Assembly (NCBI GenBank): GCA_019187405.1 | Contig: JABAQZ010000024.1 | Coordinates: forward strand, 1-56,953 | Length of the DNA stretch: 56,953 bases | Direction: 5' to 3' | Source: Ignavibacteria bacterium | Lineage (GTDB): Bacteria; Bacteroidota; Ignavibacteria; Tepidaquicellales; Tepidaquicellaceae | Shown: positions 2,483 through 56,327 of the stretch, one piece after another | How the letters are laid out: the number at the start of each line of letters is the position of its first letter | How positions within the stretch are numbered: position 1 is the stretch's first letter | The notes under the pieces: model-generated | Told to the model about the DNA's origin: nothing | Seen by the model: the letters and a program-made list of their open reading frames with translations, nothing else | Database searches by the model: none | Position numbers and translations under genes: made by a program

Positions 2483-3976
2483 TCACTTTTTGCTTCCAGA
2501 TTGTCCTTTAAACTCTGATAATTTACTTAACAGCCATTGCTTTTTGTTTGATTTTGAAAACTTAACCTCTTTGCTTAATCTCTCTGATTCAAATAAGTCG
2601 GGCTTCTGTTTTAATTTAAAAAGCCTATAAAGAAAATTTCCAAATAAGGTTTGTCCATCTTTCCATTTTTGCGTAATGGATTTATTTCTGCTAATAAAAT
2701 GTTTGAATGAATCATAAAAAGAAAGAAAAGATTCATAATCATTGAGTTCATAGTAATTCATCATCTGCAGATTTTTCAAATAATATTTCATTGTAAATAA
2801 ATCATAATCAACCAGAAGAATCTGCTCTAACGATTTTTCAAATTCTTTTTTTGCAAAATATAAATGTGCATTCGAAAATTTTTCAAGATTGTCTCTTGCT
2901 TCAGAATGAACTTTTGCTATAAATTTTTTGGTAAAGTTTTCTATAAAGTCCGCATCTCCGGCAATGCATGCAGTCTGGACTATTGAAATAAAGGGAACTG
3001 TACCTAAAAATCCGTCTTCGTTTAGAATTACATTGTCTCTAATTTGCATTTTATAAATATCGAGAAGTTCACTGTTCTTATTAAGTTCAACATCATTTAA
3101 ATTGGATAAACATTCGCAAAGGCATGCATACAAAATGTATTTGTCGGATTTGGAGAAAGACCCTGACTCCACTTCAAGAGTTTTCTTAAATTCCCAATAC
3201 TTTTTAAAAGAATCTTTGTCAATGCTTGATAAATACGATTTGTAGTAAGCATTCAGAACTCTGTAAAGTGTGAGTGATTTAGTTTTCATCAATTCGAGTA
3301 GCTCTTCAATCATATTGTGTGAATCGGCTTTTTCGAGAAACGAACTGAGCGGGTTGGTCTTTCTTTCAGGATTATGATCCGAATAAAACGAGTGAGAATT
3401 ATTATTTGCTTTAATTAGAAGAACAATGAAATTCGAAATCAGAAAATTGAAATGTGAATCAAGTTCCTCATTCATTTTTGGGTGAACATCATATTCGGCA
3501 CTGAATCCGAATTTCAGCAAATATAATCTCGACATAAAATCGAAATAATTCTCCGCGGGAATTTTCTTACTTTTGTAAGAATCATTAACCGATCTCTCTA
3601 TGACGTTAAAATTTGTTTTGAATAACTTAACGAGTTCTCTTTCATTGAGCACATCGAGAAAATTATATCCCGTCTGCAGTTCATCTTTCAAATAATATTC
3701 TACCTTTAGAAAATTTTCTGCAAGCTTCGTCAAATCGAATACCAAATTCTTAAAAATCCCATAGTTGTAATTTTTATATGGATACAATTCCTTCCAGACT
3801 TTTTCGCGTTCTAATTTCGGACTGATGAATTCCGGCGCAAATTTTTTGATGTGTTTATAAAGTGCGGTTACATACGATTTCCTGTTGAAAAATGACGAAC
3901 TAACGAAGTCGTCAAATCTTTTTAACTCTTCGGTAGTAAATGTTTTTAATATCTGAATTAATGACGAGCTGTGCAT
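2483..3976 (-). CDS. Conserved hypothetical protein, 497 aa, helical
   Basis: I do not recognise a function. The 497-aa product is rich in Lys, Leu, Phe and Ser with predicted helical character and no signal peptide or membrane segment, so it is probably cytoplasmic. The N-terminus (EELKRFDDFVSSSFFN) is a pattern I associate with hypothetical proteins of Bacteroidetes and Ignavibacteria. The start at 3976 is supported by AAAGGA a few bases upstream. It is transcribed alone, divergent from the large secreted protein at 4278, and has no obvious operon partner. No catalytic motif or metal site is visible. Confidence 0.7.
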   Translation of the reverse strand: MHSSSLIQILKTFTTEELKRFDDFVSSSFFNRKSYVTALYKHIKKFAPEFISPKLEREKVWKELYPYKNYNYGIFKNLVFDLTKLAENFLKVEYYLKDELQTGYNFLDVLNERELVKLFKTNFNVIERSVNDSYKSKKIPAENYFDFMSRLYLLKFGFSAEYDVHPKMNEELDSHFNFLISNFIVLLIKANNNSHSFYSDHNPERKTNPLSSFLEKADSHNMIEELLELMKTKSLTLYRVLNAYYKSYLSSIDKDSFKKYWEFKKTLEVESGSFSKSDKYILYACLCECLSNLNDVELNKNSELLDIYKMQIRDNVILNEDGFLGTVPFISIVQTACIAGDADFIENFTKKFIAKVHSEARDNLEKFSNAHLYFAKKEFEKSLEQILLVDYDLFTMKYYLKNLQMMNYYELNDYESFLSFYDSFKHFISRNKSITQKWKDGQTLFGNFLYRLFKLKQKPDLFESERLSKEVKFSKSNKKQWLLSKLSEFKGQSGSKK

Positions 3977-41595: not shown

Positions 41596-43328
41596 AAACA
41601 ATTTTACTTTTAGTAATCTCGGTAATAATATTTGCGGGTTTTATGACGGCGGGAAACCGTTTAAACGGTTTTTCCCACCTTGAGTCCGAAACAAATTTCA
41701 TTGTCCCAACAAGTCTTACATTTCCGTCGAAAACAAAATCCGTTCCGGAAACCATATCCGAATTAAAAACCAAAGCAAAGTTTACAAACATTGATTTATT
41801 CAAATTCAAAAATAAAATTAGCGGAGATGATGCATTTCGGTCATCGGCTGTCTCACCGATAAAACTTATTCTGCAAAATAAAACCAGATCACTTCTGCTT
41901 AAACAAAAACCGGAGAACATCACTTTCAGAATTCCGCTTTCGGATAAAAGTGTAATGGAACTCGAACTTACTAGAACATATCCTGTGAGTAGTGATTTTG
42001 AATTATTCGGTTTATCTGCCGAAGGTAAAGCCCCGCTGAATTATACCGAAGGTCTTCATTATCAAGGACTAATTAAAGGAGATGAAAACTCAATTGCTTC
42101 GGTAAGCATTTTCAATGAATTTGTAATGGGCATAATTTCTGATGAAAACGGAAATTATAATCTCGGTTCAATAAAAGACAACAGCGGCAATTATACGAAT
42201 GAATATGTTTTCTTTAATGATGCGGAGATGTCAGTAATCAATAATTATAAATGTGCGCTTGATGATAATGAGGAAAAATTTATTCTGCCTCTGCAGGAAT
42301 CCGTAAAGGATGAAATGCAATCATACGGTGATAATCCGGCTGTTCTTCCTGTAAAAATATATTTCGAAGCTGATTTTCAGATGTATACCGATAATCAGAG
42401 TAATTCTCAGAATGTATATAATTTTATCACGGGGTTTTTTAATTCTGTAAAAACAATTTATCAGAATGAAGGCATAACGATAAGTTTATACTCAGTCGGA
42501 GTTTGGACACAGGCAGATCCTTACAGAACTCTTAACGATTCATATTTAGTATTGAAAAAATTCGGCGGCTTCACTAAAGATAATTTTCAGGGAAACCTGT
42601 CACATCTGCTTTCCACAAGAAATGCCGGAATGGGCGGCATTGCATGGATCAGAGTATTATGTTCGACATTTAATCCAAACGACTCTTCGGGAAGATATGC
42701 ATTCAGCAACATTGACAACAATTATGTAAACTATCCCACATTTTCATGGACAGTACAGGTTGTAACACATGAAATGGGACATAATCTCGGTTCTCGTCAT
42801 ACACATGCATGTAACTGGCCTGTTAACGGTATCATTCAGTCAATAGATTCCTGTTACAATGCAGAGGGTAACTGCTTTACAACTTTAAGACCGAGAGTAG
42901 GAACCATTATGAGTTACTGTCATCTCTGGACAACCCAGCAGGGCGGCGGTATAAATCTTGCTTCAGGTTTTGGTCAGCTTCCCGGAGACACAATCAGATT
43001 AAGATATATTCAAGCGCCTTGCTTGAGAGGAGAATTAAATTCATCAGAAGCTCCATACACATTTGATTTGTCGCAGAATTTCCCGAATCCGTTTAATCCC
43101 TCAACAGTGATCCGGTTTTCTGTTCCGCATGAATCAATCGTCAGCATAAAGGTATTTGACGTCACCGGTAAAACAGTTGCCGTACTGGTAAACAACCGGA
43201 AATATTCACAGGGCTATTTTGATGTTACTTTTAATTCAGCAGAATTTAACTTAACAAGCGGAATATATTTTTATAAACTTGAGACAGCCGATTTTAAGGA
43301 AGTTAAGAGAATGGTCCTTATAAAATAA
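41592..43328 (+). CDS. Secreted reprolysin-like (M12B-type) metalloprotease with T9SS sorting domain
   Basis: 578 aa. The signal peptide (residues 1-20) is directly followed by GNRLNGFS, encoded by a palindromic repeat at 41654-41671. A ~230-residue prodomain-like region comes next. The catalytic motif is HEMGHNLGSRH (His393, Glu394, His397, His403), with the Met-turn GTIMSYCH. The final ~85 residues are a type A sorting domain beginning NFPNPFNPSTVIRFSVP, nearly identical in DNA to that of the module proteins downstream. It is secreted and probably cleaves proteins or peptides outside the cell. A terminator follows. Confidence 0.92.
   Translation: MKTILLLVISVIIFAGFMTAGNRLNGFSHLESETNFIVPTSLTFPSKTKSVPETISELKTKAKFTNIDLFKFKNKISGDDAFRSSAVSPIKLILQNKTRSLLLKQKPENITFRIPLSDKSVMELELTRTYPVSSDFELFGLSAEGKAPLNYTEGLHYQGLIKGDENSIASVSIFNEFVMGIISDENGNYNLGSIKDNSGNYTNEYVFFNDAEMSVINNYKCALDDNEEKFILPLQESVKDEMQSYGDNPAVLPVKIYFEADFQMYTDNQSNSQNVYNFITGFFNSVKTIYQNEGITISLYSVGVWTQADPYRTLNDSYLVLKKFGGFTKDNFQGNLSHLLSTRNAGMGGIAWIRVLCSTFNPNDSSGRYAFSNIDNNYVNYPTFSWTVQVVTHEMGHNLGSRHTHACNWPVNGIIQSIDSCYNAEGNCFTTLRPRVGTIMSYCHLWTTQQGGGINLASGFGQLPGDTIRLRYIQAPCLRGELNSSEAPYTFDLSQNFPNPFNPSTVIRFSVPHESIVSIKVFDVTGKTVAVLVNNRKYSQGYFDVTFNSAEFNLTSGIYFYKLETADFKEVKRMVLIK
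41654..41671. repeat. 18-bp palindrome inside the metalloprotease gene
   Basis: AAACCGTTTAAACGGTTT occurs here, identical to the two copies at 2101-2118 and 2166-2183. It is extended by GGG before and, after two more T, CCC. It is in frame and encodes residues 21-27 just after the signal peptide. Confidence 0.85.
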
Positions 43329-43502
43329 GATGAGATAATATCAATCTCCAAAAATCCCGCCGGGAGTTTTTCCGGCGGGATTTTTTTATGCAATATTTAT
43401 AAATCCGGATTTTGATGCAATACCGGAAATAATTTATGAATTCATTCTTCTCAAATAACATATTAACTTTGTATAAATTTGATTAATGAAAATTATTATC
43501 AA
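43329..43502 (+). repeat. Module leader A (first copy of three)
   Basis: This ~170-bp stretch, with terminator, spacer and start region, is nearly identical to those at 49,916-50,095 and 54,765-54,938. Two TAnnTTTG matches (TAACTTTG and TAAATTTG, about 43463-43481) could be the -7 element of a Bacteroidetes-type promoter, but I see no clear -33 TTG. No Shine-Dalgarno sequence precedes the start at 43503. Confidence 0.7.
43351..43388 (+). terminator. Terminator after the metalloprotease gene
   Basis: Stem TCCCGCCGG (43355-43363) / CCGGCGGGA (43372-43380), flanked by A and T runs and followed by TTTTTTT. Copies of it follow the leaders of modules B and C. Confidence 0.9.
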
Positions 43503-44993
43503 ATGAAGACACTTCTGAAAATAGTTTTTCCCATATTTATTATTATCGCATTTCAAGTGAATACGCATGCACAATCTGAATACTGGAGACAGATATTCGG
43601 CGGACCTTTTGTTGACATCGCGTATAACTGCATAGAATTAAGAGACGGCGGATATATGATGGCGGGATATAAAGAGATTCAGGTTCCCGGACAGATATGG
43701 CAGATTCCAAAATCTTATATTGTAAAGTTCGACAGAAAAGGGAATATTCTTTGGGAAAAGATTATAGGCGATTCTGTCACAGCAAGCAAATCTCTGACAT
43801 TAATTGAAGATCCATCGGGAAATATTTATTTACCTTATGCTTCCGGTTATGCTCATTTGGTTAAATTAAACTCAAACGGAGAAATCCTGTGGGACAGGGA
43901 TTTTTCAAAGTATGAGATTCTGTCATTAGCAGGTGTTTCATTTTCTACTGATTTTAAAAAAATCATTTTTATTGGATACAATGAAATTAATTCAGCTTAT
44001 ACTACATCTATTACAAAGTTAGATTCAAGCGGAAATCTGATTTGGAGTAAACCTTACTATGACAGTATTCCGATCTATAGTTATTATTCTTCTTCAAACA
44101 ATTCGTTTTTATTTACAAATGATTCTTACTACATATCCGGTTCAAAAGGGGTCAGAGGATTTATAATAAAAACAGATACAAGCGGAAGAGTACTATGGAA
44201 TAAGAGATACTTTGAAACTTATGGAATAGGAAGTATTGCAGAGAGTTCAGAAAACTCATTTCTTATTTCTGCATATTCAAATTCTTCGGTATTAAATCTT
44301 GTCTGCATGAAATTAGACAGCTCCGGCAGTATTATTTGGAAAAGGGATTATCTGAATGATACGCTTGCAAATAGAATTAGTGCCAATAAAATAGTGAAAA
44401 CCAAGAACAATATGTATGCTCTTGGTACAACTCCGGGGTATAATGTTGGAAGATTAATGATAATTGATTCTCTTGGAAATATTGTTAACAGTAAATTTTA
44501 TTATTATCCGGATAGTATAGGGATAAATCAATACAATATTAATATAACTTCCGACTCCGGGTATATTGTAGGAGGATTAATAAGATTTTATGATTTCGAG
44601 AATAAAAGCCATAGCTTCTCAAGTGATGAATTTATTCAACCTGATTATGGAGATAAAATTATAGATGTTTTAGTATTTAAAATTGATAAAGACGGAAACA
44701 CTGTCGGTATATTTAATAATACTATATCATCAGAAAATCCTGATATTAGTATTTTTCCGAATCCATTTAACAATAGTTTTAATATAAATTTTACAGTTTC
44801 AAATAATTCAAAAACAATAATAAAATTATTCGACATTCTGGGAAAAAATGTGAAGAATATTGAAAATGCTGCTTTGTTACCGGGAATCTATGATTATAAA
44901 GTAAATGCTTCGGAATTAAGTTCGGGCATTTATTTCATAAAGTTTTCAATAAACGATATAACATATTTCAAAAAAGTTGTACTGCTAAAATGA
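43503..44993 (+). CDS. Module A gene 1: secreted blade-repeat propeller protein with sorting domain
   Basis: From the ATG at 43503 (in-frame TTG 24 bp earlier not used) the product is 496 aa. The signal peptide ends VNTHAQS. The body holds repeated blades of the form KxDxxGNxxWxK followed by GGY or GYIV, seen as KFDRKGNILWEK, KLNSNGEILWDR, KLDSSGNLIWSK and KTDTSGRVLWNK, i.e. a beta-propeller. The C-terminus is a diverged type A sorting domain (IFPNPFNNSFNINFTVS, then SSGIYFIKF). It is homologous to the genes at 50096 and 54939 but clearly diverged from them after the signal peptide. Function unknown, surface or secreted. Confidence 0.83.
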   Translation: MKTLLKIVFPIFIIIAFQVNTHAQSEYWRQIFGGPFVDIAYNCIELRDGGYMMAGYKEIQVPGQIWQIPKSYIVKFDRKGNILWEKIIGDSVTASKSLTLIEDPSGNIYLPYASGYAHLVKLNSNGEILWDRDFSKYEILSLAGVSFSTDFKKIIFIGYNEINSAYTTSITKLDSSGNLIWSKPYYDSIPIYSYYSSSNNSFLFTNDSYYISGSKGVRGFIIKTDTSGRVLWNKRYFETYGIGSIAESSENSFLISAYSNSSVLNLVCMKLDSSGSIIWKRDYLNDTLANRISANKIVKTKNNMYALGTTPGYNVGRLMIIDSLGNIVNSKFYYYPDSIGINQYNINITSDSGYIVGGLIRFYDFENKSHSFSSDEFIQPDYGDKIIDVLVFKIDKDGNTVGIFNNTISSENPDISIFPNPFNNSFNINFTVSNNSKTIIKLFDILGKNVKNIENAALLPGIYDYKVNASELSSGIYFIKFSINDITYFKKVVLLK

Positions 44994-44999
44994 AGAAAG

Positions 45000-47900
45000 A
45001 TGAAAAAGATAATTTTAATATTTTTATTTATAATTACTACACTAAATATTTGCAATTCTCAGCCATTAATACAGTTTGCAGAAACCCTATTCAAAAATAA
45101 TACAAGCCACGAGATTTATATAAAGCTGTATCCTGCATCAGCAGTGTTTAGCGGGTTTTACAGTCCTCCTAATGAAAATTTTAGAAAGTATTCCTTAAAG
45201 AGAAGTAATCCAAATCAGTAACCCTTTTGGCAAGCTGGTCCTGATGGTGATAAATATATAACCGGCGGCACAAAATTAATCATGCCAAATGATTATGCCG
45301 TTATAGATTTCGACGATGGTCTTTATTACAGCATAGATTCTACAAGTGACAAGGTAATCGGAGGAATCAGTTACGGACTATGGAAATTCGAAATATTTAA
45401 TTCTGAAAACGGAATACCGGATACCGATACGCTTGAATATTTTTATCTTGATGAAAGAGATATGAATCATGGTGTAATATCAGGATTTTCACAGGTTGAT
45501 TTGTTTTTAACCTTGCTTCGAAGACAAAATGCTTCAGATGACAGCTTGGTTTTTAATTTTGTTTCAGGAGATACTGTTAATATTTATGATTACAGAATAG
45601 AAAATAAAACCATTAAATCATGGCATAAAGTAGGGATTTATTCCCCAATATACGGTCAAGATCCTGTCACTCCAGGCAGTCCGAATAAAGGTCTGTTCAA
45701 TTCACATCCCGATTTTACTGTTTATCCGATTTATTCAACCGAATACGGGGCAATAAAGCATGAAAATGCAGGAAGCATTAATCTGAATCTTAATATAGAT
45801 CATGATATTACTACGAGAGATACTTTACTGGAAAGTATTACAAACATCAGGATCGAAAGTAAGACATTGTTCAAAATAAACGACGGAAAAATCTTTCACA
45901 TGATTACTCCGTCTTATCCTTCGGGTGGTTATACTAATCTGATTATAGGAGAAGATTCTGCCAAGCTTCAACTTAGACCTAATTCGCAAATCATTGCAGA
46001 TCCTCCAAACAGAATTACACTCAAAAACGGCGGCTTTCTGCTGAAGAATCCCGGTTCAAGAATAACCATTAATCCAGGTGCTTATCTGTGTAACGAAGGC
46101 GGCTCGATCAGAGGAAGCGGTATTATTTATTATACCGGAGGCATTCATCAATCCATGTGCAATCAGCTGACTGACTATCTCCTTCAGGACAGCGTAAAAT
46201 TCATTCTCGATTCAAATGCAATTCTTCCGATTCCGAATAATACAACTTTGCATTTAAAAGGAAATACAACTTCACTTATCATGAAACCCGGATCAAAACT
46301 TCTCTTTGGTGAAAATTCGGGGATTGTATGTGATAGCGGCGGAAAAGTTATCGCAAACAATGCGACATTCGCTTCTATTGACTCAACGAAGAAATGGAAC
46401 GGGATTTCTCTTAGCGATTTATCTCAAGACACTATAAAGAACTGTATAATTAAAAATGCAATGTATGGAATTTCCATTTCGGATAAATATGATGCAGAAG
46501 ATACCGGCATAGATTATTCTGCTGAAATCTCCGGATGCACATTTGTTAATCAGACTAATTATGTACTCAACAGCGCAGTCTATATTGCCGGAAGCAATAA
46601 TGTGCTTATCATGAATAATTCCGTTTCATCGTCTGTTCTCGAAAAAGGATACACTCACGGCATTTATGCAGAGTATTGTCCGGAAGGTGTATTTAACTTA
46701 ATCGGCAATGATATCAGCGGAGCAGGAAACGGAATGACGCTCATCGGATGCTCTCCATTTGCAGCGCAGAATATTCTAACTGGGAATGAATACTCCGAAT
46801 GCGGGATGTTTCTCGATAATTCAAACGGAACATTCGAATATAATGAAATCAGCGATTTCTATTGTTCGTATTTTTCCTATTATTCTTCTCCTGATTTGCT
46901 GAAAAATGTTTTCGATAATTATCACGACGATAACCTGTGGCTTTCTTCGTCATCTGTTCCCGTAATGCATCCGCTTATAAACGCAGGATCAGTTTACTGG
47001 TATGCAGGCGATAATACGATTAATGGATCTCCATCTAATGCTTGCCTCGCCTATCTTTAAAGGCGGGCGGGAATAATCTTCGAAGAAGATGCATATCCGA
47101 TGTTGAATTACGGATACAATAAGTTTATGATGACAAATAACGATTATTATATCAGCGGAACAAATCCTTCGGGAGGAAACAGGGAATTTTATGTATTGCA
47201 GAACTACTGGGGAGGAACACCTGATTCGAATAAGTTTAATGTTGCTAATGCAGATGTGATTTATATTCCTTATGACAACAATTCATCTTCTGCAAGAGAA
47301 ACAAACTCTGACGATAAGTTTGACATCGGATTCGGACTTTATGATACGGTATTCTATTACGAGCCGGATAATCCGAATTCTGCTCAGGATCTTTACCTTG
47401 AAGCATATCAGAAAGAATATGCGGGAGAATATTCACAAGCGATTGATATTTACAAAGAGATAGTCGAAGAATACAAAGACAGTTCATATACATCTTCCTG
47501 CATGTCGAGAATATTCAGCTGCTTTGAAAAGAATAACTCAGCCCAAAGCGATTACAGTTCATTAGAAAATTATTACTGCAATATTTCAAACGACACATCA
47601 TATACAGAAATACAAAGAAACATCGCCGAAGAGTTTATGATAAAGTCGAAAGTAAAGCAAAACAATATTGAAGAAGCAATCAGCGATTACAATGCAATAT
47701 ACACACAGAACATAAGCACTCCGAAAGGAATACATGCACTGATAAACAAAGAAATACTTTCTGCCGGAGCAGGCGATAATATGTTAACCGGCTCGGTTTT
47801 TGAAAACATTGAATTAAGTCAGAATGCAATAAACACAATATTAAGCAAATTAGTCCGAAAGGATAAAAACATCTTCAGGGATTTAAGCATGAAACCAAAT

Positions 47901-48170
47901 GGTTATTCATTATCACAGAATTTCCCGAATCCGTTTAATCCGTCAACTGTAATCCGGTTTGCTTTACCGCATGAATCAATCGTCAGTATAAAAGTATTTG
48001 ATGTTACCGGTAAAACAGTTGCCGTACTGGTAAGCAACCGGAAATATTCACAAGGCTATTTTGATGTTACCTTTAATTCAGCTGGATATAATTTAACAAG
48101 CGGAATATATTTTTATAAGCTTGAGACTTCTGAATTTAAGGAAGTTAAAAGAATGGTTCTTATCAAATAG
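45000..48170 (+). pseudogene. Module A gene 2: secreted beta-helix protein, interrupted by two in-frame stops
   Basis: One continuous frame of 1057 codons from the ATG at 45000 (signal peptide MKKIILIFLFIITT) to 48170. It is broken by TAA at 45219-45221 and TAA at 47058-47060 without any frameshift. Compared with the intact paralogue at 51540-54764, the second stop lies inside a 30-nt hairpin-rich sequence (47037-47066) that replaces one codon. The domains read through are a diverged N-terminal part, a beta-helix with ISGCTFVNQTNYVLNS, a TPR-like helical segment (EYAGEYSQAIDIYKE) and a sorting domain (NFPNPFNPSTVIRFALP). It is most likely a pseudogene; readthrough is possible but unproven. 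Confidence 0.8.
47037..47066. repeat. 30-nt hairpin-rich insertion in module A gene 2
   Basis: Relative to the intact paralogue, 30 nt replace one codon (net 27 nt, frame kept). The sequence has CGCCT / AGGCG pairing around ATCTTTAA and a GC-rich GGCGGG end. It looks like a short palindromic repeat insertion and brings in the stop TAA at 47058. Confidence 0.6.
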
Positions 48171-48230
48171 TGACATTTGTCCCCTTAAAAAGAGTTAAAT
48201 TAGTCATACAAACTCAAACAGGAGGGGAAA

Positions 48231-49094
48231 GTGGAAAAAGGCAATATCAAAAGCGAAGAGCGTCAAAGGCACAAATCATCTGAGGGAGAGTTCATATTTG
48301 AATTAAGAAATAACTATGAACTCTCACCAAGGGTGAGTGAATCGATACTTGAATCAGCAAAGAGTTTCTTGATCCGGGACCATGCTCTTAAGGAAGGAGA
48401 AATAGAAGTATCAGTAATTTGTATTGAGGAGCTCAGCGGAAGGATGATTGAAAGCCTGAAGAAAGTTCGAGTTCGTTTAACAATAGATAGAGGTCTTGAA
48501 GACATTGAAGTGTTGAAAAAAACGGGAAGAGTGATCTTGCGCCGGGTCCGGGTTCAACGAATAACACAAGAAGCATTAGAGCAGAAAGGAGTCTTAAGTC
48601 AGGAAGATATCGGCAGATATTTGAATTGTGATGTACGGACAGTGAAGCGAGATATCCGAGAGATAAAGGAATCAGGAATTGAGGTAATAACCCGTGGAGT
48701 ACTTCGTAACATAGGTAGAGGTCAGACACATAAAACAAAGATAGTAGGTTTATATCTGGAAGGAAAAACATTCAGTGATATAAGATTAAAGACCCATCAT
48801 AGTTACGGAGCGATCAAAAGATACTTACAGGATTTTCAGAAGGTACTGATGAGTGTTCACAACGGAATAAGGGATATATTATCAATAAGTTTTGGAACCG
48901 GTCTAAGCGAAAGGTTGGTCAATGAATATATTGAATTGATTAGCCACAGTAGAAAAGATCGGCAGAAAAATGCAATGATGAAGGATATGATCAGACAGTG
49001 GAACAGAGCAGCAACGAGGATAAAAAAAAAGGAAGCAGCTGGAAACAGCGATTACATGCGGATTCTGGCTCCTATGACAGGAGGTATGAGATGA
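48231..49094 (+). CDS. DUF1670-like helix-turn-helix protein 1 of the element
   Basis: 287 aa, GTG start with a strong AGGAGG five bases upstream. Residues ~1-110 form an N-terminal domain (FIFELRNNYELSPRVSESIL, then RVRLTIDRGLEDIEVLKK). Then come three helix-turn-helix-like units: LSQEDIGRYLNCDVRTVKRD (~122-141), GKTFSDIRLKTHHSYGAIKR (~178-197) and a third around GLSERLVNEYIELI. The THKTKIVGLYLEG and TGLSERLVNEY patterns match DUF1670 (PF07900) as I remember it. No DDE, HUH, Ser or Tyr recombinase motif is visible. The stop overlaps the start of the second gene. Confidence 0.78.
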   Translation: MEKGNIKSEERQRHKSSEGEFIFELRNNYELSPRVSESILESAKSFLIRDHALKEGEIEVSVICIEELSGRMIESLKKVRVRLTIDRGLEDIEVLKKTGRVILRRVRVQRITQEALEQKGVLSQEDIGRYLNCDVRTVKRDIREIKESGIEVITRGVLRNIGRGQTHKTKIVGLYLEGKTFSDIRLKTHHSYGAIKRYLQDFQKVLMSVHNGIRDILSISFGTGLSERLVNEYIELISHSRKDRQKNAMMKDMIRQWNRAATRIKKKEAAGNSDYMRILAPMTGGMR

Positions 49095-49891
49095 GTTTAA
49101 ATCCAATAAGAGACAGATTTGAGAGTTTGAAGAAAAGGAATTTCCGTAGTTCATTAGTTCATTTGCTTGAGAACGATTACAAATTATTGGGTTCCAGAAA
49201 GATAATAGAATTACTATCGGAGGACATAGATGACCTTCACAATGAGTATTATCCACAGAGGGACCGAGTTGGCAATGGAGAGATAGTTTTTAGAACAACG
49301 AAAGATGATGGTCAACGCCAAAGCTATGGTAAACGAACAGAAGATTACGCAAGCACAACGGTAATCCTGCCGTTAGTAACGAATGAAGATATTGAGCGAA
49401 GAATATTTTATAAAAAGGGAGACAGAAATAGTAACTATAAGCATAGAGAAGCTCGTGACTTAGAGACCATGGTAAGATTACTCAAAAGCGCTAAGCAACA
49501 GGGTGGATTATTAAGTGGAGCAGAGTTGAGTATGCTGATGAACAGGACTTTAGGAACGATAGGAAAATATTTGAAGGCATATCAGGAAAAGACCGGAGAG
49601 ATACTTCCGCTGAAAGGATATGTGTTAGATCAAGGGAGTTTGCCGACGCACAAAGGAATAATAATCAGTTTATATGAGAATGGAGTAAGTCCGGCAGATA
49701 TAGTACTAAAGACTTCACATAGTCAGGATGCGGTAGACAGATATATAAAACATTATGAACAGGTAAAAAAACTTCTCAAAAAGGGATTAGATGAAAAAGC
49801 AATAGTATCAATTACCGGAAGAAGTTTGAATGTTATAAAGCAATACATTAAATTGTTTAATAATTTTAACAAGAAAAAAATCAAAAAATAG
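49091..49891 (+). CDS. DUF1670-like helix-turn-helix protein 2 of the element
   Basis: 266 aa from the ATG at 49091, which overlaps the upstream stop (ATGA) and has AGGAGG seven bases before it. An upstream GTG in frame would add 31 residues overlapping gene 1 and was not used. The N-terminal domain (residues 1-120, with SLVHLLENDYKLLGSRKI and an IFYKKGDRNS segment) differs from gene 1. The C-terminal half has the same three-unit order: LLSGAELSMLMNRTLGTIGK (~140-159), GVSPADIVLKTSHSQDAVDR (~198-217) and a third near SITGRSLNVIKQYIKLF. The two proteins are paralogues and probably act together. Confidence 0.76.
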   Translation: MSLNPIRDRFESLKKRNFRSSLVHLLENDYKLLGSRKIIELLSEDIDDLHNEYYPQRDRVGNGEIVFRTTKDDGQRQSYGKRTEDYASTTVILPLVTNEDIERRIFYKKGDRNSNYKHREARDLETMVRLLKSAKQQGGLLSGAELSMLMNRTLGTIGKYLKAYQEKTGEILPLKGYVLDQGSLPTHKGIIISLYENGVSPADIVLKTSHSQDAVDRYIKHYEQVKKLLKKGLDEKAIVSITGRSLNVIKQYIKLFNNFNKKKIKK

Positions 49892-49915
49892 TCAGGGGAC
49901 AAATGTCCCTATTGT

Positions 49916-50095
49916 AAATAAGATGAGATAGTATCAATTTCGAAAAATCCCGTCGGGAGTTTTTCCGGCGGGATTTTTTTATGCAATATTTATAAATCCG
50001 GATTATGATGCAATACCGGGAAAAATTAATGAATTCATTCTTCTCAAATAACATATTAACTTTGTATAAATTTGATTAATGAAAATTATTATCAA
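49916..50095 (+). repeat. Module leader B (second copy of three)
   Basis: Nearly identical to 43329-43502, with the terminator at 49943-49980 and the same TAACTTTG and TAAATTTG pair. It resumes the host sequence right after the inserted element. Confidence 0.7.
49943..49980 (+). terminator. Terminator of leader B
   Basis: Stem TCCCGTCGG / CCGGCGGGA (with one G-T pair), followed by seven T. In copy A it would have ended the beta-helix transcript before the element inserted; now it follows the element. Confidence 0.85.
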
Positions 50096-51475
50096 ATGAA
50101 GACACTTCTGAAAATATTTTTACTCGCCGGGATTTCAATTTCTAATAATGCAGATGCTCAAAAGCCGATAACATGGCAGAGGACTTACGGAGACGGTAAT
50201 ATTGACTATGGATATTCGATTGTCCAGACTCCGGACGAAGGGTATATTGCGGTTGGGAGAAAAAGGATAAATACTACATCATATATGTTTGCAATGAGGT
50301 TAAATAAATATGGGGATACAATATGGACTAGAACTTTCCATGGTTATCAGGCAAATCAAATAGAAAAAACTTCTGAGGGTAATTATATTATTTGCGGTTC
50401 TAATTTAATAAAGATTAATATACAGGGAGATACATTATGGACCAGTCTGCAAGGTTATGGTGCAAAACTAAAAGAAACACCTGATAAAGGGTTTATAATT
50501 TGTTTATCAGCCTATAACGGACCGTATCTTTTCTATCCAAAATTGAAAAAAGTAGATTCACTTGGTAATATTCAGTGGGAAAGAACTTTTACAGAAAACA
50601 TATATGATGGCAGATTTTCAGATATAACGGTTGATAGTGAAGGAAACTATTTATTGACAGGGAATTTTAGTGATACATCATATATTTGGGATTATATGTT
50701 TGTAATGAAAACAAATCAGTTTGGTAATATTATCTGGTTTAAAAAATATAAACCTTATATGTATACAAATTGCATATTAATAACTCAAGGTAACAAAATT
50801 ATTGTTGGAGGTGATTATAATAAATCATTTTTAATTAGCTTAACTTCTACAGGAAAATTAACATGGTTAAAATATTATGATGATTCTTCAGAATATGGAA
50901 CCTGTAAATCGGCAATTTTAACAAACGATGGAGGAATTGCCTTTACAGGAACATACTCCAATGGAAATTTTGATTACTATGTAAGATTAACGAAAGTTGA
51001 TTCACTAGGTAACGAACAATGGAAAAAAATTTATGGTTTTGATGATGCTGATTTCGGATATAATATTAGACAAACTTCTGACAGCGGATTTATTATAGCC
51101 GGAATTAGAGAAAATTATAACTTAGGTGACATTTTTTTAACAAAAACTGATAAAACAGGTTTTTCAAATCCCCATGTCTCTATATTGTATAATGTCGATT
51201 TTATTGCAAAAGATTACATATTAAATCAAAATTTTCCTAACCCATTTAATCCAGTAACCGATATTCGTTTCTCAATTAAAAAAAGTAATTTTATAAAAAT
51301 AAACTTGTATGATATAAATGGAAAAATTGTTAAAGAACTGGTAAATGATTTTAAAAATAGCGGAGATTATAAAATTAAGTTTATTGGTTATAATTTTTCC
51401 AGCGGAGTATATTTTTATTCTTTATTTGCAGATAATGAATTAATTGAAACAAAAAAAATGTTATTAATCAAATAA
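50096..51475 (+). CDS. Module B gene 1: secreted blade-repeat propeller protein with sorting domain
   Basis: 459 aa from the ATG at 50096. The signal peptide ends near ADAQK. Blades: RTYGDGNIDYGYSIVQ, GYIAVGRKR, RLNKYGDTIWTR, KVDSLGNIQWERT, KTNQFGNIIWFKK and KVDSLGNEQWKKIYG. The sorting domain is NFPNPFNPVTDIRFSI with a final KKMLLIK. The first ~65 residues are almost identical to module C gene 1, while the rest is diverged. Intact. It probably works with the next gene, 64 bp downstream. Confidence 0.85.
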   Translation: MKTLLKIFLLAGISISNNADAQKPITWQRTYGDGNIDYGYSIVQTPDEGYIAVGRKRINTTSYMFAMRLNKYGDTIWTRTFHGYQANQIEKTSEGNYIICGSNLIKINIQGDTLWTSLQGYGAKLKETPDKGFIICLSAYNGPYLFYPKLKKVDSLGNIQWERTFTENIYDGRFSDITVDSEGNYLLTGNFSDTSYIWDYMFVMKTNQFGNIIWFKKYKPYMYTNCILITQGNKIIVGGDYNKSFLISLTSTGKLTWLKYYDDSSEYGTCKSAILTNDGGIAFTGTYSNGNFDYYVRLTKVDSLGNEQWKKIYGFDDADFGYNIRQTSDSGFIIAGIRENYNLGDIFLTKTDKTGFSNPHVSILYNVDFIAKDYILNQNFPNPFNPVTDIRFSIKKSNFIKINLYDINGKIVKELVNDFKNSGDYKIKFIGYNFSSGVYFYSLFADNELIETKKMLLIK

Positions 51476-51539: not shown

Positions 51540-54500
51540 ATGATGAAAAATATAGTATTAATAATAATTTTGCTTGTTTTTTTTCTCAATCCATTTGCGA
51601 AAGGAACAGATCCTGCAGTTGAATTTTATTTTATTAATAAAATAGAAAATCTAGATCTATACGTAAGGTTTTATCCCATTGGATCAGTATTTAATGGTGA
51701 TGACCATTTTTATCTTCCTACTTTTTATAGTCTAATAGCAAGAGGAATTGATCCTATAAATCCTAATACCGGGTTTCCAAGAAAGGGATCAGAAGTAAAA
51801 CTAAAGTATATCATTGGATTAGATGGATATGCATTAAGTACTTTTAATCATCCTGATTCTGATTCACTTTATTTTCGGGTTGAACCAGGTACTGAGATTA
51901 GTTACAATAAATGGTTAACTTTGGGACATGATGCAACTGCGAATCCAACACAACAAGATGCACTTTTGGGGTATGGAAATTATATGTTTGAAATTTATAT
52001 TAATACAAATCTAGATAGTCCATTTGTTAAGATCTTACAATTACCAATTGATTGGCTTGATTTTAACTATCCTTATTCAGATTCTTCTGGAGGCTCGATA
52101 GATTTGAAATTGAGAATTTATTCATTAGATCCACTAAATATTACTTTTCAGTGGTTGAATCCTGTGGGTGATGAAATTTCGTTATTCGGGACAAATAGTC
52201 CTCCATATAACGGGGGCATTCAAGTCTACAAACAATATCATAGATTCGATACAAATCTTGGTGAATGGATCGGATACAATCTTAACAATGAATATCCCCC
52301 TTCATTAGGAAATTCTGTTTCAGATATAAATTTCTTAACTTACCCCTTGGACGGAAGAAATCTTCCAAGCCCTTATAACATTCCCCAGCATCCTGATGCC
52401 GGATTAATTCGAGCAAATGTTTCAATTGATACTAATGTAAATACTCCAACAACTTTACTTCAAAATCCAACAAACATAACTATATCAAATAAAGCTATCG
52501 TAAAAGTAGAGTCAGCTGATACTTTAAATTTACATACTCCGACTTCACCGTCGAATAGTCACGTAAATTTAATCGTGACTGATTCTTCTTTCTTAGCTGT
52601 CAGACCTACTGCTAAAATTATTGTTCATTCACCAAACAGAATAACTTTAAAAAATACAGGCACAATTATAATCAATACAGGAGGAGAAATTAGAATTAAA
52701 CCAGGAGCATTGTTTTGCAATGAAGGAGGCAAGTTATTCGGAAGAGTAACTTTTGAAAATGGATTTCATCAGCCTCTCTGCTCCCAGCTCGCAGACTTTC
52801 TTCTCAGAGACAGCTCGAAATTCATTCTCGATTCAAACGCCACGCTGCCGATTCCGGATAACACAACCCTGCATCTTCAAGGAATTGAGTCAGCATTAAT
52901 TTTAAATCCCGGCTCGAAACTCCTCTTCGGCGAAAACTCGGGAATTATATGCGACAGCGGAGGAAAGCTCATAGCGAATAATGCGACATTCGCTTCTATT
53001 GATTCTACGAAGAAATGGAACGGAATTTCTTTGAGCGGATTGTCACAGGATACTATAAAGAATTGTGTCGTTAAGAATGCAATGTATGGAATTTCCATTT
53101 CGGATAAATATGATGCAGAAGATACCGGCATTGATTATTCTGCTGAAATCTCCGGATGCACATTTATCAATCAGACTAATTATGTACTCAACAGCGCAGT
53201 CTATATCGCAGGAAGCAATAACATACTGATTATGAATAATTCCATTTCATCTACAATTCTTGAAAAAGGATTTACACACGGCATCTATGCGGAATACTGT
53301 CCCGAAGGAGCTTTCAATATTATCGATAATAATATCAGCAACGCCGGATTCGGTATGACTTTGATAGGATGTTCACCTTTTGTTGCGCAGAATACAATTA
53401 CAGGAAATGAATTTTCAGATTGCGGAATGTTTCTCGATAATTCAAACGGAACATTCGAATATAATGTAATCAGTGATTTTTATTATTCATACTTTTCATA
53501 TTATTCCTCTCCTGATTTGCTGAAAAATATATTCGATAATTATTATGACGATAATATATGGCTTTCGAGTTCTTCTGTTCCGGTAATGCATCCGCTTATA
53601 AACGCAGGATCAGTTTACTGGTATGCAGGAGATAATACGATTAAAGGTTCACCTTCAGAGGCGGGAATAATCTTCGAAGAAGATGCATATCCGATGTTGA
53701 ATTACGGATACAATAAGTTTATGATGACAAATAACGATTATTATATCAGCGGAACAAATCCTTCGGGAGGAAACAGGGAATTTTATGTATTGCAGAACTA
53801 CTGGGGAGGAACACCTGATTCGAATAAGTTTAATGTTGCTAATGCAGATGTGATTTATATTCCTTATGACAACAATTCATCTTCTGCAAGAGAAACAAAC
53901 TCTGACGATAAGTTTGACATCGGATTCGGAATATATGATACGGTGTTCTATTACGAGCCGGATAATCCGAATTCAGCACAGGACCTTTATCTTGAAGCAT
54001 ATCAGAAAGAATATGCGGGAGAATATTCACAAGCGATTGATATTTACAAAGAGATAGTCGAAGAATACAAAGACAGTTCATATACATCTTCCTGCATGTC
54101 GAGAATATTCAGCTGCTTTGAAAAGAAAAACTCAGCCCAAAGCGATTACAGTTCATTAGAAAATTATTACAGCAATATTTCAAGCGACACCAGTTACACA
54201 GAAATACAAAGAAACATTGCCGAAGAGTTTATGATAAAGTCGAAAGTAAAGCAAAACAACATCGAAGAAGCAATCAGCGATTACAATGGGATATACAACC
54301 AAAACATTAACACACCAAAAGGAACACATGCACTGATAAACAAAGAAATACTTTCTGCCGGAGCAGGCGATAATATGTTAAACAACTCAGCATTTGAAAA
54401 AATAGAATTAAAGCTGAATGCATTGAATCATTTATTTGCAAATATCATTAAGAAGGAAAAGAATATTTTTTCAGATATGAAAATTAAACAGCAAGGTTAT

Positions 54501-54764
54501 TCATTGTCGCAGAATTTCCCGAATCCGTTTAATCCCTCAACAGTGATCCGGTTTTCTGTTCCGCATGAATCAATCGTCAGCATAAAGGTATTTGACGTCA
54601 CCGGCAAAACAGTTGCCGTACTGGTAAACAACCGGAAATATTCACAGGGCTATTTTGATGTTACTTTTAATTCAGCAGAATTTAACTTAACCAGCGGGAT
54701 ATATTTTTATAAACTTGAGGCAGCTGAGTTTAAGGAAGTTAAGAGAATGGTCCTTATAAAATAA
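51540..54764 (+). CDS. Module B gene 2: secreted beta-helix and TPR-like protein with sorting domain
   Basis: 1074 aa, intact. Signal peptide (IVLIIILLVFFLNPFAKG). Residues ~20-300 form a diverged domain shared with module C gene 2 (KYIIGLDGYALS, PIDWLDFNYPY). Then a region of GGEIRIKPGALFCNEGG leads into a parallel beta-helix (ISGCTFINQTNYVLNS, then NSISSTILEKGFTHGIYAEYC), a TPR-like helical segment (AYQKEYAGEYSQAIDIYKE) and a sorting domain (NFPNPFNPSTVIRFSVP...KRMVLIK). Its C-terminal two-thirds match module A gene 2 closely at the DNA level, and the first third does not. It is probably a surface-attached protein; ligand unknown. Confidence 0.87.
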   Translation: MMKNIVLIIILLVFFLNPFAKGTDPAVEFYFINKIENLDLYVRFYPIGSVFNGDDHFYLPTFYSLIARGIDPINPNTGFPRKGSEVKLKYIIGLDGYALSTFNHPDSDSLYFRVEPGTEISYNKWLTLGHDATANPTQQDALLGYGNYMFEIYINTNLDSPFVKILQLPIDWLDFNYPYSDSSGGSIDLKLRIYSLDPLNITFQWLNPVGDEISLFGTNSPPYNGGIQVYKQYHRFDTNLGEWIGYNLNNEYPPSLGNSVSDINFLTYPLDGRNLPSPYNIPQHPDAGLIRANVSIDTNVNTPTTLLQNPTNITISNKAIVKVESADTLNLHTPTSPSNSHVNLIVTDSSFLAVRPTAKIIVHSPNRITLKNTGTIIINTGGEIRIKPGALFCNEGGKLFGRVTFENGFHQPLCSQLADFLLRDSSKFILDSNATLPIPDNTTLHLQGIESALILNPGSKLLFGENSGIICDSGGKLIANNATFASIDSTKKWNGISLSGLSQDTIKNCVVKNAMYGISISDKYDAEDTGIDYSAEISGCTFINQTNYVLNSAVYIAGSNNILIMNNSISSTILEKGFTHGIYAEYCPEGAFNIIDNNISNAGFGMTLIGCSPFVAQNTITGNEFSDCGMFLDNSNGTFEYNVISDFYYSYFSYYSSPDLLKNIFDNYYDDNIWLSSSSVPVMHPLINAGSVYWYAGDNTIKGSPSEAGIIFEEDAYPMLNYGYNKFMMTNNDYYISGTNPSGGNREFYVLQNYWGGTPDSNKFNVANADVIYIPYDNNSSSARETNSDDKFDIGFGIYDTVFYYEPDNPNSAQDLYLEAYQKEYAGEYSQAIDIYKEIVEEYKDSSYTSSCMSRIFSCFEKKNSAQSDYSSLENYYSNISSDTSYTEIQRNIAEEFMIKSKVKQNNIEEAISDYNGIYNQNINTPKGTHALINKEILSAGAGDNMLNNSAFEKIELKLNALNHLFANIIKKEKNIFSDMKIKQQGYSLSQNFPNPFNPSTVIRFSVPHESIVSIKVFDVTGKTVAVLVNNRKYSQGYFDVTFNSAEFNLTSGIYFYKLEAAEFKEVKRMVLIK

Positions 54765-54938
54765 GATGAGATAATATCAATTTCGAAAAATCCCGTTGGG
54801 AGTTATTCCGGCGGGATTTTTTTGTGCAATATTTACAAATCCGGATTTTGATACAATACCGGAAATAATTTATGAATTCATTCTTCTCAAATAACATATT
54901 AACTTTGTATAAATTTGATTAATAAAAATTATTATCAA
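54765..54938 (+). repeat. Module leader C (third copy of three)
   Basis: Nearly identical to leaders A and B. The terminator is at 54786-54823 with stem TCCCGTTGG / CCGGCGGGA. One base change turns the ATG of a short leader frame into ATA. Confidence 0.7.
54786..54823 (+). terminator. Terminator of leader C
   Basis: Stem TCCCGTTGG (54791-54799) / CCGGCGGGA (54808-54816), followed by seven T. It lies 22 bp after module B gene 2. Confidence 0.85.
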
Positions 54939-56327
54939 ATGAAGACACTTCTGAAGATATTTTTACTCGCCGGGATTTTAATTTCAATTTCTAAAAATGC
55001 AAATGCACAGAAGCCGATCACGTGGCAGAGGACTTACGGAGACGGTAATATTGATTACGGATATTCAATAGTCCAGACTCCGGATGAAGGGTATATTGCG
55101 GTTGGGAGAAAAAGGATAAATACTTCTAATTTTATTTATGCCATGAGAATAAACAAATTTGGAGATACGATTTGGTCGAAAACTTATAATGGTGCTGTCG
55201 CTTATGATATTCAAATGTTAGATTACAATAATTATGTAATTTGCGGTTCAAGTTTCATTAAAATTGATATTAATGGAAATATAATTTGGAATCATTCTTT
55301 AAACTGGCCATACCCCAAGAAATTTTTAATTTCAAAAGAAAATGGATTCTATTTAATAACGTCGATTGATTCAATTTTTTCGGCATATCCTTTAATTCAA
55401 AAAATGGATTCTAAAGGGAATTTATTATGGAGCAGAATTTATAAAGAAGGTATAGCTGATGGATGGTTTACTGACATTAAATAGGACGCTAAGAAAAATC
55501 TATTATTAACTGGGATTTACTCTGATACAGTCCCGTTATCATACAGCTTGTTTGTTATGAAAACCGACTTAAATGGAAATATAATTTTCTTTAGGAAGTA
55601 TGATTCTTTGCAAACATCTAATTTAATATGTGAAAAAAATAATGAATTCATGCTTTGCGGCAATTCTTCAAATGACATTACTTATCAGGCTCGATGTAGT
55701 GAAATAGGTAATATAATTTGGAAAAAAAATTATGACAATGGATACCCTGAATATGGTTACAGTCATGATTTTATTAAGACTATTGATAATGGTTATGCAT
55801 CATTAGGAACATATCATAATGGTAATTTTAGTTATTTCTTTAGATTAATTAAAACTGATTCAGTAGGTAATGAACAATGGAGAAAATTATATGGTTTTAA
55901 TGATCATGACGAAGGATTTTCTTTAAACCAAACTATCGATTCCGGATTTATTTTAATAGGAATAAGAGACAACTTTAATTTAGGAGATATTTTTATTGTA
56001 AAAACAGACAAGATTGGATTTGCTTCTCCTCCAGTTAAAATAATAAACAATCCATACCAAAATATTTTATCGGGAAATTTTAATATTTATCCTAATCCCT
56101 TTAATTCTTTTGCAAAAATTGAATTTGATATTCCTAAGAAAAGTTTTGTTGACATAAATTTATATGACCTCAAAGGATCATTAGTTAAACATGTTATAGA
56201 TAAATTATTCCAAGCGGGAAGTTATTCTATTAATCTTAAAATGAGTAATATACCGTCAGGAATTTATTTTTGTAAAATACAGATATATAATGAATTCAAA
56301 ATTTTTAAATTAATAGTTTTAAAATAA
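54939..56327 (+). pseudogene. Module C gene 1: propeller protein interrupted by one in-frame stop
   Basis: One frame of 463 codons from the ATG at 54939 to 56327, broken by TAG at 55482-55484. The paralogue has sense codons here (DITVDSEGNY against DIK-stop-DAKKN), and the frame continues unshifted on both sides. The signal peptide ends ANAQ; blades include RTYGDGNIDYGYSIVQ, KMDSKGNLLWSRIY and KTDSVGNEQWRKLYG. The end is a diverged sorting domain (IYPNPFNSFAKIEFDIP, then SGIYFCKI). It is probably a recent pseudogene; readthrough cannot be excluded. Confidence 0.78.

What the first reader, a model, noticed from the sequence alone, without database searches (positions are those of the whole stretch)
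48231..49891. The two element proteins are paralogues with the same triple-HTH C-terminus and different N-terminal domains
Both carry the order [HTH]-[THK..I..LY..G..DI.LKT.HS..A..RY]-[HTH near the end], but their first ~110 residues do not resemble each other. This suggests a DNA-bound heteromer with two distinct effector domains. Either N-terminal domain might hide an unrecognised catalytic fold.
Basis: partly seen in the sequence, partly recalled or inferred. Interest (0 to 1): 0.68.

Follow-up and report, generated by a model that had tools for sequence, protein, structure and literature searches.

The report
Jumping element targeting secretion-signal gene ends
The two proteins are sister DNA-binding proteins carried by a small mobile DNA element that settles, to the exact base, at the tail end of genes for proteins secreted by one bacterial export system, restoring the gene's last codon and stop signal as it does so, and no known enzyme for this kind of DNA cutting is visible in it.

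Summary
The two proteins (A 48231-49094, B 49091-49891) are paralogues, but over their whole length: both match Pfam DUF1670, and their N-terminal halves alone align profile to profile (prob 97.2, E 3.6e-11). The "different N-terminal domains" claim fails. Models show helix, beta-hairpin, then three HTH units in both; no catalytic fold was found. The more important result is the element carrying them (48167-49915, 1749 bp). It is mobile: terminal inverted repeats built on GACA-NN-TGTC palindromes, a 2-bp target duplication (AA; CG where the last codon is Arg), two empty paralogous sites in the same window, and identical copies behind different genes in related genomes. It inserts between bases 2 and 3 of the last codon of genes with a T9SS type A sorting domain (49 of 53 gene ends tested) and supplies an A plus TAG/TAA, so the secreted protein keeps its end. 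In 21 of 21 elements folded, the left repeat pairs with the ribosome-binding site of A. Best reading: an insertion-sequence-like, T9SS-gene-end-specific element whose DUF1670 pair recognises ends and target and probably performs recombination. Catalysis is inferred, not shown. No report of DUF1670 or this targeting turned up in the papers searched.

The parts
48167..49915 (+). Whole mobile element, 1749 bp
   Evidence: Both flanks align to two element-free paralogous sites in the window; inverted ends
48165..48166 (+). Left copy of the 2-bp target duplication (AA, first two bases of the host gene's last Lys codon)
   Evidence: CG/CG in two other elements fixes the length at 2 bp
49916..49917 (+). 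Right copy of the 2-bp target duplication (AA), followed by the native ATAAGATGAG
48167..48184 (+). Left terminal inverted repeat ATAGTGACATTTGTCCCC; its first four bases supply the last base of the host gene's Lys codon and its stop TAG
49895..49915 (+). Right terminal inverted repeat GGGGACAAATGTCCCTATTGT
48174..48233 (+). Leader stem: inner left repeat (48174-48186) pairs with ribosome-binding site and start codon of A (48222-48233)
48231..49094 (+). Protein A, DUF1670, 287 aa (GTG start)
49091..49891 (+). Protein B, DUF1670, 266 aa (ATG start, ATGA overlap with the stop of A)
47922..48158 (+). T9SS type A sorting domain (TIGR04183) of the host gene (ORF 47100-48170) whose 3' end holds the element
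54732..54785 (+). Empty paralogous site 1: same gene end and downstream DNA without the element
43294..43345 (+). Empty paralogous site 2

Best explanation
48167-49915 is an autonomous insertion-sequence-like element. SHOWN from sequence: it is multi-copy; its ends are inverted repeats around a GACA-NN-TGTC-type palindrome; it leaves a 2-bp duplication; and it sits with one-base precision inside the last codon of T9SS type A cargo genes. There it adds A plus TAG or TAA, so the cargo's terminal Lys and stop are restored, and the gene's own Lys/Arg codon plus stop is left behind its other end. INFERRED: A and B, two DUF1670 paralogues, form a complex that binds the palindromic ends and the gene-end sequence AAR AAR ATG NTN NTN NTN AA and joins them across a 2-bp core. 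I think it more likely than not that A/B themselves do the cutting and joining, since they are the only genes and no other recombinase is a constant companion. INFERRED regulation: when transcription of the cargo gene runs on into the element, the left repeat folds onto the ribosome-binding site of A and keeps A/B scarce; because the start of A is in effect a third copy of the end's half-site, A/B may also repress their own gene. Some copies collapse to a 25-bp footprint.
For: Empty sites: left flank 46164-48169 is 85.8% identical to 52785-54763, right flank 49916-50441 83.5% identical to 54759-55290; a second empty copy matches at 89.6% and 95.6%. Duplication: left/right dinucleotides CG/CG in both elements whose last codon is CGN and whose two ends are readable (L033, L042). 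Targeting without hand-picking: all 33 exact hits of AATANNGNCATTTGTC in six genomes are 22 T9SS gene ends, 2 nested in 25-bp units behind a T9SS end, and 9 other (right) element ends. Of 53 gene-side ends, 49 match TIGR04183 at E <= 0.01. Mobility: the same left end follows five different T9SS genes in G031, three in G019, four in G014; several genomes have contigs that break inside the element, with identical right ends and different flanks. Stop restoration: left junctions read AA|A-TAR although 11 of 30 native T9SS genes of this genome end in AAG and 28 of 30 in TAA, none in TAG; 32 of 35 right ends are followed by a Lys or Arg codon plus stop. Leader: 21 of 21 folded, z -2.4 to -9.7; own repeat x own RBS duplex -20.6 against -11.5 kcal/mol for mismatched pairs. 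Trans recombinase: no PF00239 match in 5 of 6 multi-copy genomes incl. this one, no Y1_Tnp in G014.
Against: No catalytic domain or conserved DDE, HUH, serine- or tyrosine-recombinase signature was found in A or B; invariant residues lie mostly in the HTH units. Models are weak (mean pLDDT 69 and 58). Not all sites fit: L044 abuts a non-T9SS sequence, L038 abuts what I take (recalled) for another IS, L035 and L030 have a different right-hand codon. An archaeal-phylum pair (L202) has inverted repeats but no T9SS gene. No transposition was observed; everything rests on comparative sequence, mostly from MAGs.
Confidence: 0.55

Rival explanations
1. A/B are only DNA-binding adaptors: they bring element ends and T9SS gene ends together, and a host recombinase supplied in trans (for example a Xer-type tyrosine recombinase or a DDE transposase) does the chemistry, much as Xer-dependent integrative elements borrow host enzymes (recalled).
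For: Only HTH folds are found; no catalytic family matches.
Against: No trans factor is identified; serine recombinases are absent from 5 of 6 multi-copy genomes, Y1 transposases from 1 of 6. Xer and DDE enzymes were not searched.
Confidence: 0.35
2. Y1/HUH single-strand transposition of the IS200/IS605 or REP/RAYT type: palindromic ends and gene-end footprints are REP-like.
For: Palindromes near both ends; 25-bp palindromic footprints at gene ends; Y1_Tnp genes in 5 of 6 genomes.
Against: G014 (97% complete) has at least four copies and no Y1_Tnp match; ends are true inverted repeats with a 2-bp duplication; no HUH in A or B (inspection).
Confidence: 0.04
3. Not mobile: a regulatory operon that belongs with T9SS cargo genes and is inherited vertically.
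For: Constant position behind T9SS genes, same orientation in two subfamilies.
Against: Empty paralogous sites, 2-bp duplication, identical copies behind unrelated cargo genes, opposite orientation in the third subfamily.
Confidence: 0.02
4. One reading: a heteromer with two unrelated N-terminal effector domains.
For: Pairwise BLAST sees no N-terminal similarity.
Against: N-terminal profiles align, prob 97.2; both cover the whole DUF1670 model.
Confidence: 0.01

Closest known systems
Pfam DUF1670 (PF07900)
   Same: A and B are both full-length members.
   Different: The model is described as of unknown function; here it is tied to a mobile element with defined ends and target.
Insertion sequences that hit REP palindromes (ISPa11, ISPpu9/10 and others; PMC1525189, abstract read)
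   Same: Small elements with strong preference for one repeated extragenic sequence.
   Different: Here the target is coding: the last codon of T9SS sorting-domain genes; no transposase family is recognised.
Tn7 at attTn7 (3' end of glmS) (recalled)
   Same: Works like it: safe insertion at a conserved gene 3' end, host gene product intact.
   Different: One site per genome there, many here; 2-bp instead of 5-bp duplication; A and B match none of the Tns proteins in Pfam.
IS110/IS1111 and IS607 (recalled)
   Same: Dinucleotide core shared by both junctions, site-specific.
   Different: No DEDD or serine recombinase match; little non-coding room in the window element; no Rfam match.
IS10/IS50/IS200 leader control (recalled)
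   Same: Works like it: read-through transcripts sequester the transposase ribosome-binding site.
   Different: Here the terminal repeat itself is one arm of the stem.

Membership tests
DUF1670 (PF07900) | Whole-protein score over Pfam cut-off (25 bits) | tested here: met
   A 154.2, B 163.6 bits
Insertion sequence (general) | Terminal inverted repeats | tested here: met
Insertion sequence (general) | Flanking target duplication | tested here: met
   AA or CG, 2 bp; L035 deviates
Insertion sequence (general) | Multi-copy at different sites with empty sites known | tested here: met
Insertion sequence (general) | Encodes a recognisable transposase | tested here: not met
   Only DUF1670 and HTH families
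IS200/IS605, REP/RAYT | HUH-Y1 transposase (PF01797) in the element or available in the cell | tested here: not met
   Not in A/B; absent from multi-copy genome G014, though present in the other 5 of 6
IS607 / serine recombinase | Serine recombinase (PF00239) | tested here: not met
   Not in A/B; 0 in 5 of 6 genomes
IS110/IS1111 | DEDD transposase and bridge RNA | tested here: inconclusive
   No Pfam match in A/B, no Rfam match; genomes not searched for it
Tyrosine recombinase | R-H/K-R-H-Y catalytic set | tested here: inconclusive
   H187-x22-H210-x7-Y218 of B resembles the spacing (recalled) but lies in an HTH and lacks the Arg of HxxR (inspection)
T9SS type A cargo (host gene) | TIGR04183 at the C-terminus | tested here: met
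   Host gene 5.8e-10; 49 of 53 sites

The most novel reading that the evidence does not exclude
DUF1670 pairs are a new class of DNA recombinase: two paralogous proteins without any known catalytic fold that integrate an element across a 2-bp core into a degenerate target set by the codons of the T9SS sorting signal, with many permissible sites per genome and no damage to the host gene.
Probability: 0.45. Interest if true: 0.9.

Novelty: new variant of a known kind. Interest (0 to 1): 0.78.

Why it matters
A Pfam family without function gets a role that can be tested at once: genes, ends, target and junction are all defined to the base. The target is unusual: a protein-sorting signal read as DNA, with more than a hundred sites in this genome (at least 150 sorting-domain genes), all usable without harm because the element restores the codon and stop. 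If A/B do the chemistry, this is a recombinase outside the known classes, and a possible tool for adding genes behind secreted-protein genes in Bacteroidota. It also explains assembly breaks and stray palindromes at T9SS gene ends.

Tried and rejected
Right end as a mimic of the T9SS target: proposed by eye, then scored with a matrix of 52 target sites; in 12 elements the right end ranked 704th to 2179th of about 3400-3600 positions, no better than chance, so dropped. Tyrosine-recombinase reading of H-x22-H-x7-Y: kept only as a remark, as the residues sit in an HTH. Ungapped 13-nt complementarity of repeat and RBS: weak alone (mean 9.6 against 8.1; in 6 of 21 elements more than a third of windows elsewhere in the element are as good); duplex energies and folding carry the point, with L013 no better than mismatched pairs. 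In one search the count of repeat-RBS pairs itself was often reached by shuffles (in 10 of 21 elements by more than a tenth of them); the energies were not. Phage, plasmid and viral collections: no relatives. PADLOC and PHROGs: only weak HTH-region matches. Solved structures by sequence: one hit at E 0.038, not believed. ISA1214 (recalled) as a relative: one paper listing only, not pursued. Papers: DUF1670 none, PF07900 none, T9SS with insertion-sequence terms: listings only, nothing on this seen. Fold searches: no recombinase catalytic fold appears among the top rows, which does not exclude one. PMC5006887: passages read, they did not contain the read-through statement I wanted, so the IS10 comparison is marked recalled.

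Full report
OBSERVATION. The two genes are real and overlap by ATGA. BLASTP confirms the shared part, A 110-236 with B 129-255, 30% identity, E 2e-14. The claimed lack of N-terminal resemblance does not hold. Both proteins match Pfam DUF1670 over the full profile. Profiles of the A and B families align over 230 columns with 99.2 probability. The N-terminal halves alone align at 97.2, E 3.6e-11, against at most 1.5 in 40 column-shuffled controls and 0.6 for the reversed profile. AlphaFold2 models, mean pLDDT 69 (A) and 58 (B), give the same order of elements: a helix, a beta-hairpin, two helices, then three HTH units. Foldseek gives no PDB match at E <= 0.001 for either; the best are mostly HTH proteins, among them the bipartite DNA-binding domain of Tc3 transposase for A. 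VIA-align rows for A are mainly winged-helix and HTH regions, best Z 6.7 over 58 residues.

THE ELEMENT. An inverted repeat flanks the pair: ATAGTGACATTTGTCCCC at 48167 and GGGGACAAATGTCCCTATTGT ending at 49915. The window supplies its own empty sites. The host gene and the DNA after it exist again nearby without the element: 46164-48169 and 49916-50441 match 52785-54763 and 54759-55290 (85.8 and 83.5%), and 47910-48169 and 49916-50121 match 43068-43327 and 43323-43528 (89.6 and 95.6%). The empty sequence is ..CTTATAAAATAAGATGAG; filled it is ..CTTATCAA, element, AAATAAGATGAG.

RELATIVES. A scan of genome contigs gave 12 loci coding for relatives of B: ten cover most of B, nine of them at 66-83% identity and L020 at 51%, from bins named Bacteroidota, Ignavibacteria, Cloacimonadota and archaea. 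A search of 391 genomes of the class found matches in 38. Many matches begin at contig ends with the same element tail and different DNA after it: six contigs in G219 (two element types), four contig ends in G019, four in G031, two in this genome, two in G014. This is what an assembler leaves when a repeat has several near-identical copies.

TARGET. In one search the left end of the elements lay directly on the stop codon of genes ending KKM-V/I-L-x-K. To test this without choosing, I took every exact hit of AATANNGNCATTTGTC in six genomes: 33 hits, of which 22 follow a T9SS gene end, 2 are nested in 25-bp units behind such an end, and 9 are the other end of an element. No exact hit lies elsewhere. 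(Hits with one mismatch are mostly chance: the reversed-reading control gives similar totals.) Of 53 gene-side ends chosen (see rows dropped), 49 match TIGR04183; the table does not name the misses, but three of the peptides are fragments of 22-25 residues and one (L044) does not look like a sorting domain. This genome has at least 150 such genes, so a chance hit on the exact base and strand of one of them has a probability of a few in 100,000 per insertion (my arithmetic). Three subfamilies differ in their ends: GTGACA-NN-TGTCCCC (window type), AAGGACATTTGTCCTCC (L030-L033, L035; L034 diverged), and GTATCA-NN-TGATACC (L038, L040, L042, L044, L045, L048; L041 diverged). The third has the T9SS gene at its other end and in the opposite orientation where one is seen: the same gene-end site, entered the other way round.

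JUNCTION. The insertion point is between bases 2 and 3 of the last codon. Of 52 left junctions, 49 end in AA, two in CG, one in AG. In both CG cases with two readable ends (L033, L042) CG stands at the other side too, so the duplication is 2 bp. The element brings the A that completes the codon and TAG or TAA (TGA in L020). Native T9SS genes of this genome (30 examined of at least 150) end in AAA 18, AAG 11, AGG 1, with TAA 28, TGA 2 and no TAG. After the right end the native codon and stop remain: 30 of 35 right ends are followed by AAA/AAG plus stop and 2 more by an Arg codon plus stop; L030, L035 and L136 are not. AAG occurs in 9 of those 30 but in none of the 52 left junctions, as expected if the left A belongs to the element.

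FOOTPRINTS. 25-bp units that fuse the outer half of the left end to the outer half of the right end stand alone or in tandem behind T9SS genes: three in tandem in this genome (G000:C8:72573-72647), one each in G005 and G007, in 3 of 12 genomes searched; the reversed-reading control gave 0 in those three, 2 in G031 and 1 in G029. A deletion between the two palindromes, which are direct repeats because they are palindromic, would make them (inference).

LEADER CONTROL. In 21 of 21 elements folded, the inner half of the left repeat pairs with the ribosome-binding site and start of A; minimum energies are 2.4 to 9.7 standard deviations below dinucleotide shuffles. Repeat and RBS match within an element and less so between elements: mean duplex energy -20.6 kcal/mol against -11.5 for both kinds of mismatched pairing; own pairing is better than the mean of the others in all 21, though L013 only beyond the printed decimal. 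So the start of A carries a third, co-varying copy of the end's half-site. RNA-level sequestration and binding by A/B are both compatible with this.

MECHANISM. Nothing in A or B matches a nuclease, transposase or recombinase family with confidence. Residues invariant in 21 A and 23 B proteins sit mostly in the HTH units. Serine recombinases are missing from five of six multi-copy genomes, including this one; a Y1 transposase is missing from G014, which has at least four copies, but present in the other five. That leaves A/B as a new recombinase, or A/B as adaptors for a general host enzyme. I favour the first, about 0.55 to 0.35, because A and B are the only genes, are kept together, and B keeps 65-79% identity to the window's B in nine of ten aligned relatives while the ends drift.

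LIMITS. Most named relatives are MAGs; the copy counts are lower bounds from broken contigs. An archaeal-phylum pair, L202, has 38-nt inverted repeats with the same palindrome style but no T9SS gene at its side, and L203 shows no clear end repeats; PF07900 matches occur in 6 of 292 genomes of that phylum sample. So the family's target is not T9SS everywhere. The literature was searched in open-licence papers only.

Noticed in passing
window 47041-47071: The T9SS gene that hosts the element is broken: about 27 bp (CGCCTATCTTTAAAGGCGGGCGGG and neighbours) not present in the intact paralogue 51540-54764 splits it into ORFs 45282-47060 and 47100-48170; one copy in the window.
   Followed up: partly
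L011:4838-4854: A third-subfamily end (TAGTATCAAATGATACC) stands right after the window-type element, at the AA-ATAG made by its right junction: apparent nested insertion.
   Followed up: partly
L015, L020: Bins named archaeon and Thermoplasmatota carry the element behind T9SS genes: binning error or transfer; not decided.
   Followed up: no
L202 (G436:C108): DUF1670 pair in a genome of the archaeal phylum with 38-nt inverted repeats and no T9SS gene; the flanks outside the palindromes look like two halves of one hairpin.
   Followed up: partly
L162, after the stop codon: A native T9SS gene end is followed by CGGCAAATGTCGTATTACTAAAATAA, which looks like a decayed 25-bp footprint.
   Followed up: no
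L015:192-1050: Gene A is frameshifted in this copy while B is intact.
   Followed up: no
control genome Methanosarcina acetivorans: DUF1670 rings above cut-off in this archaeon, which I take to lack T9SS (recalled); its target is unknown.
   Followed up: no
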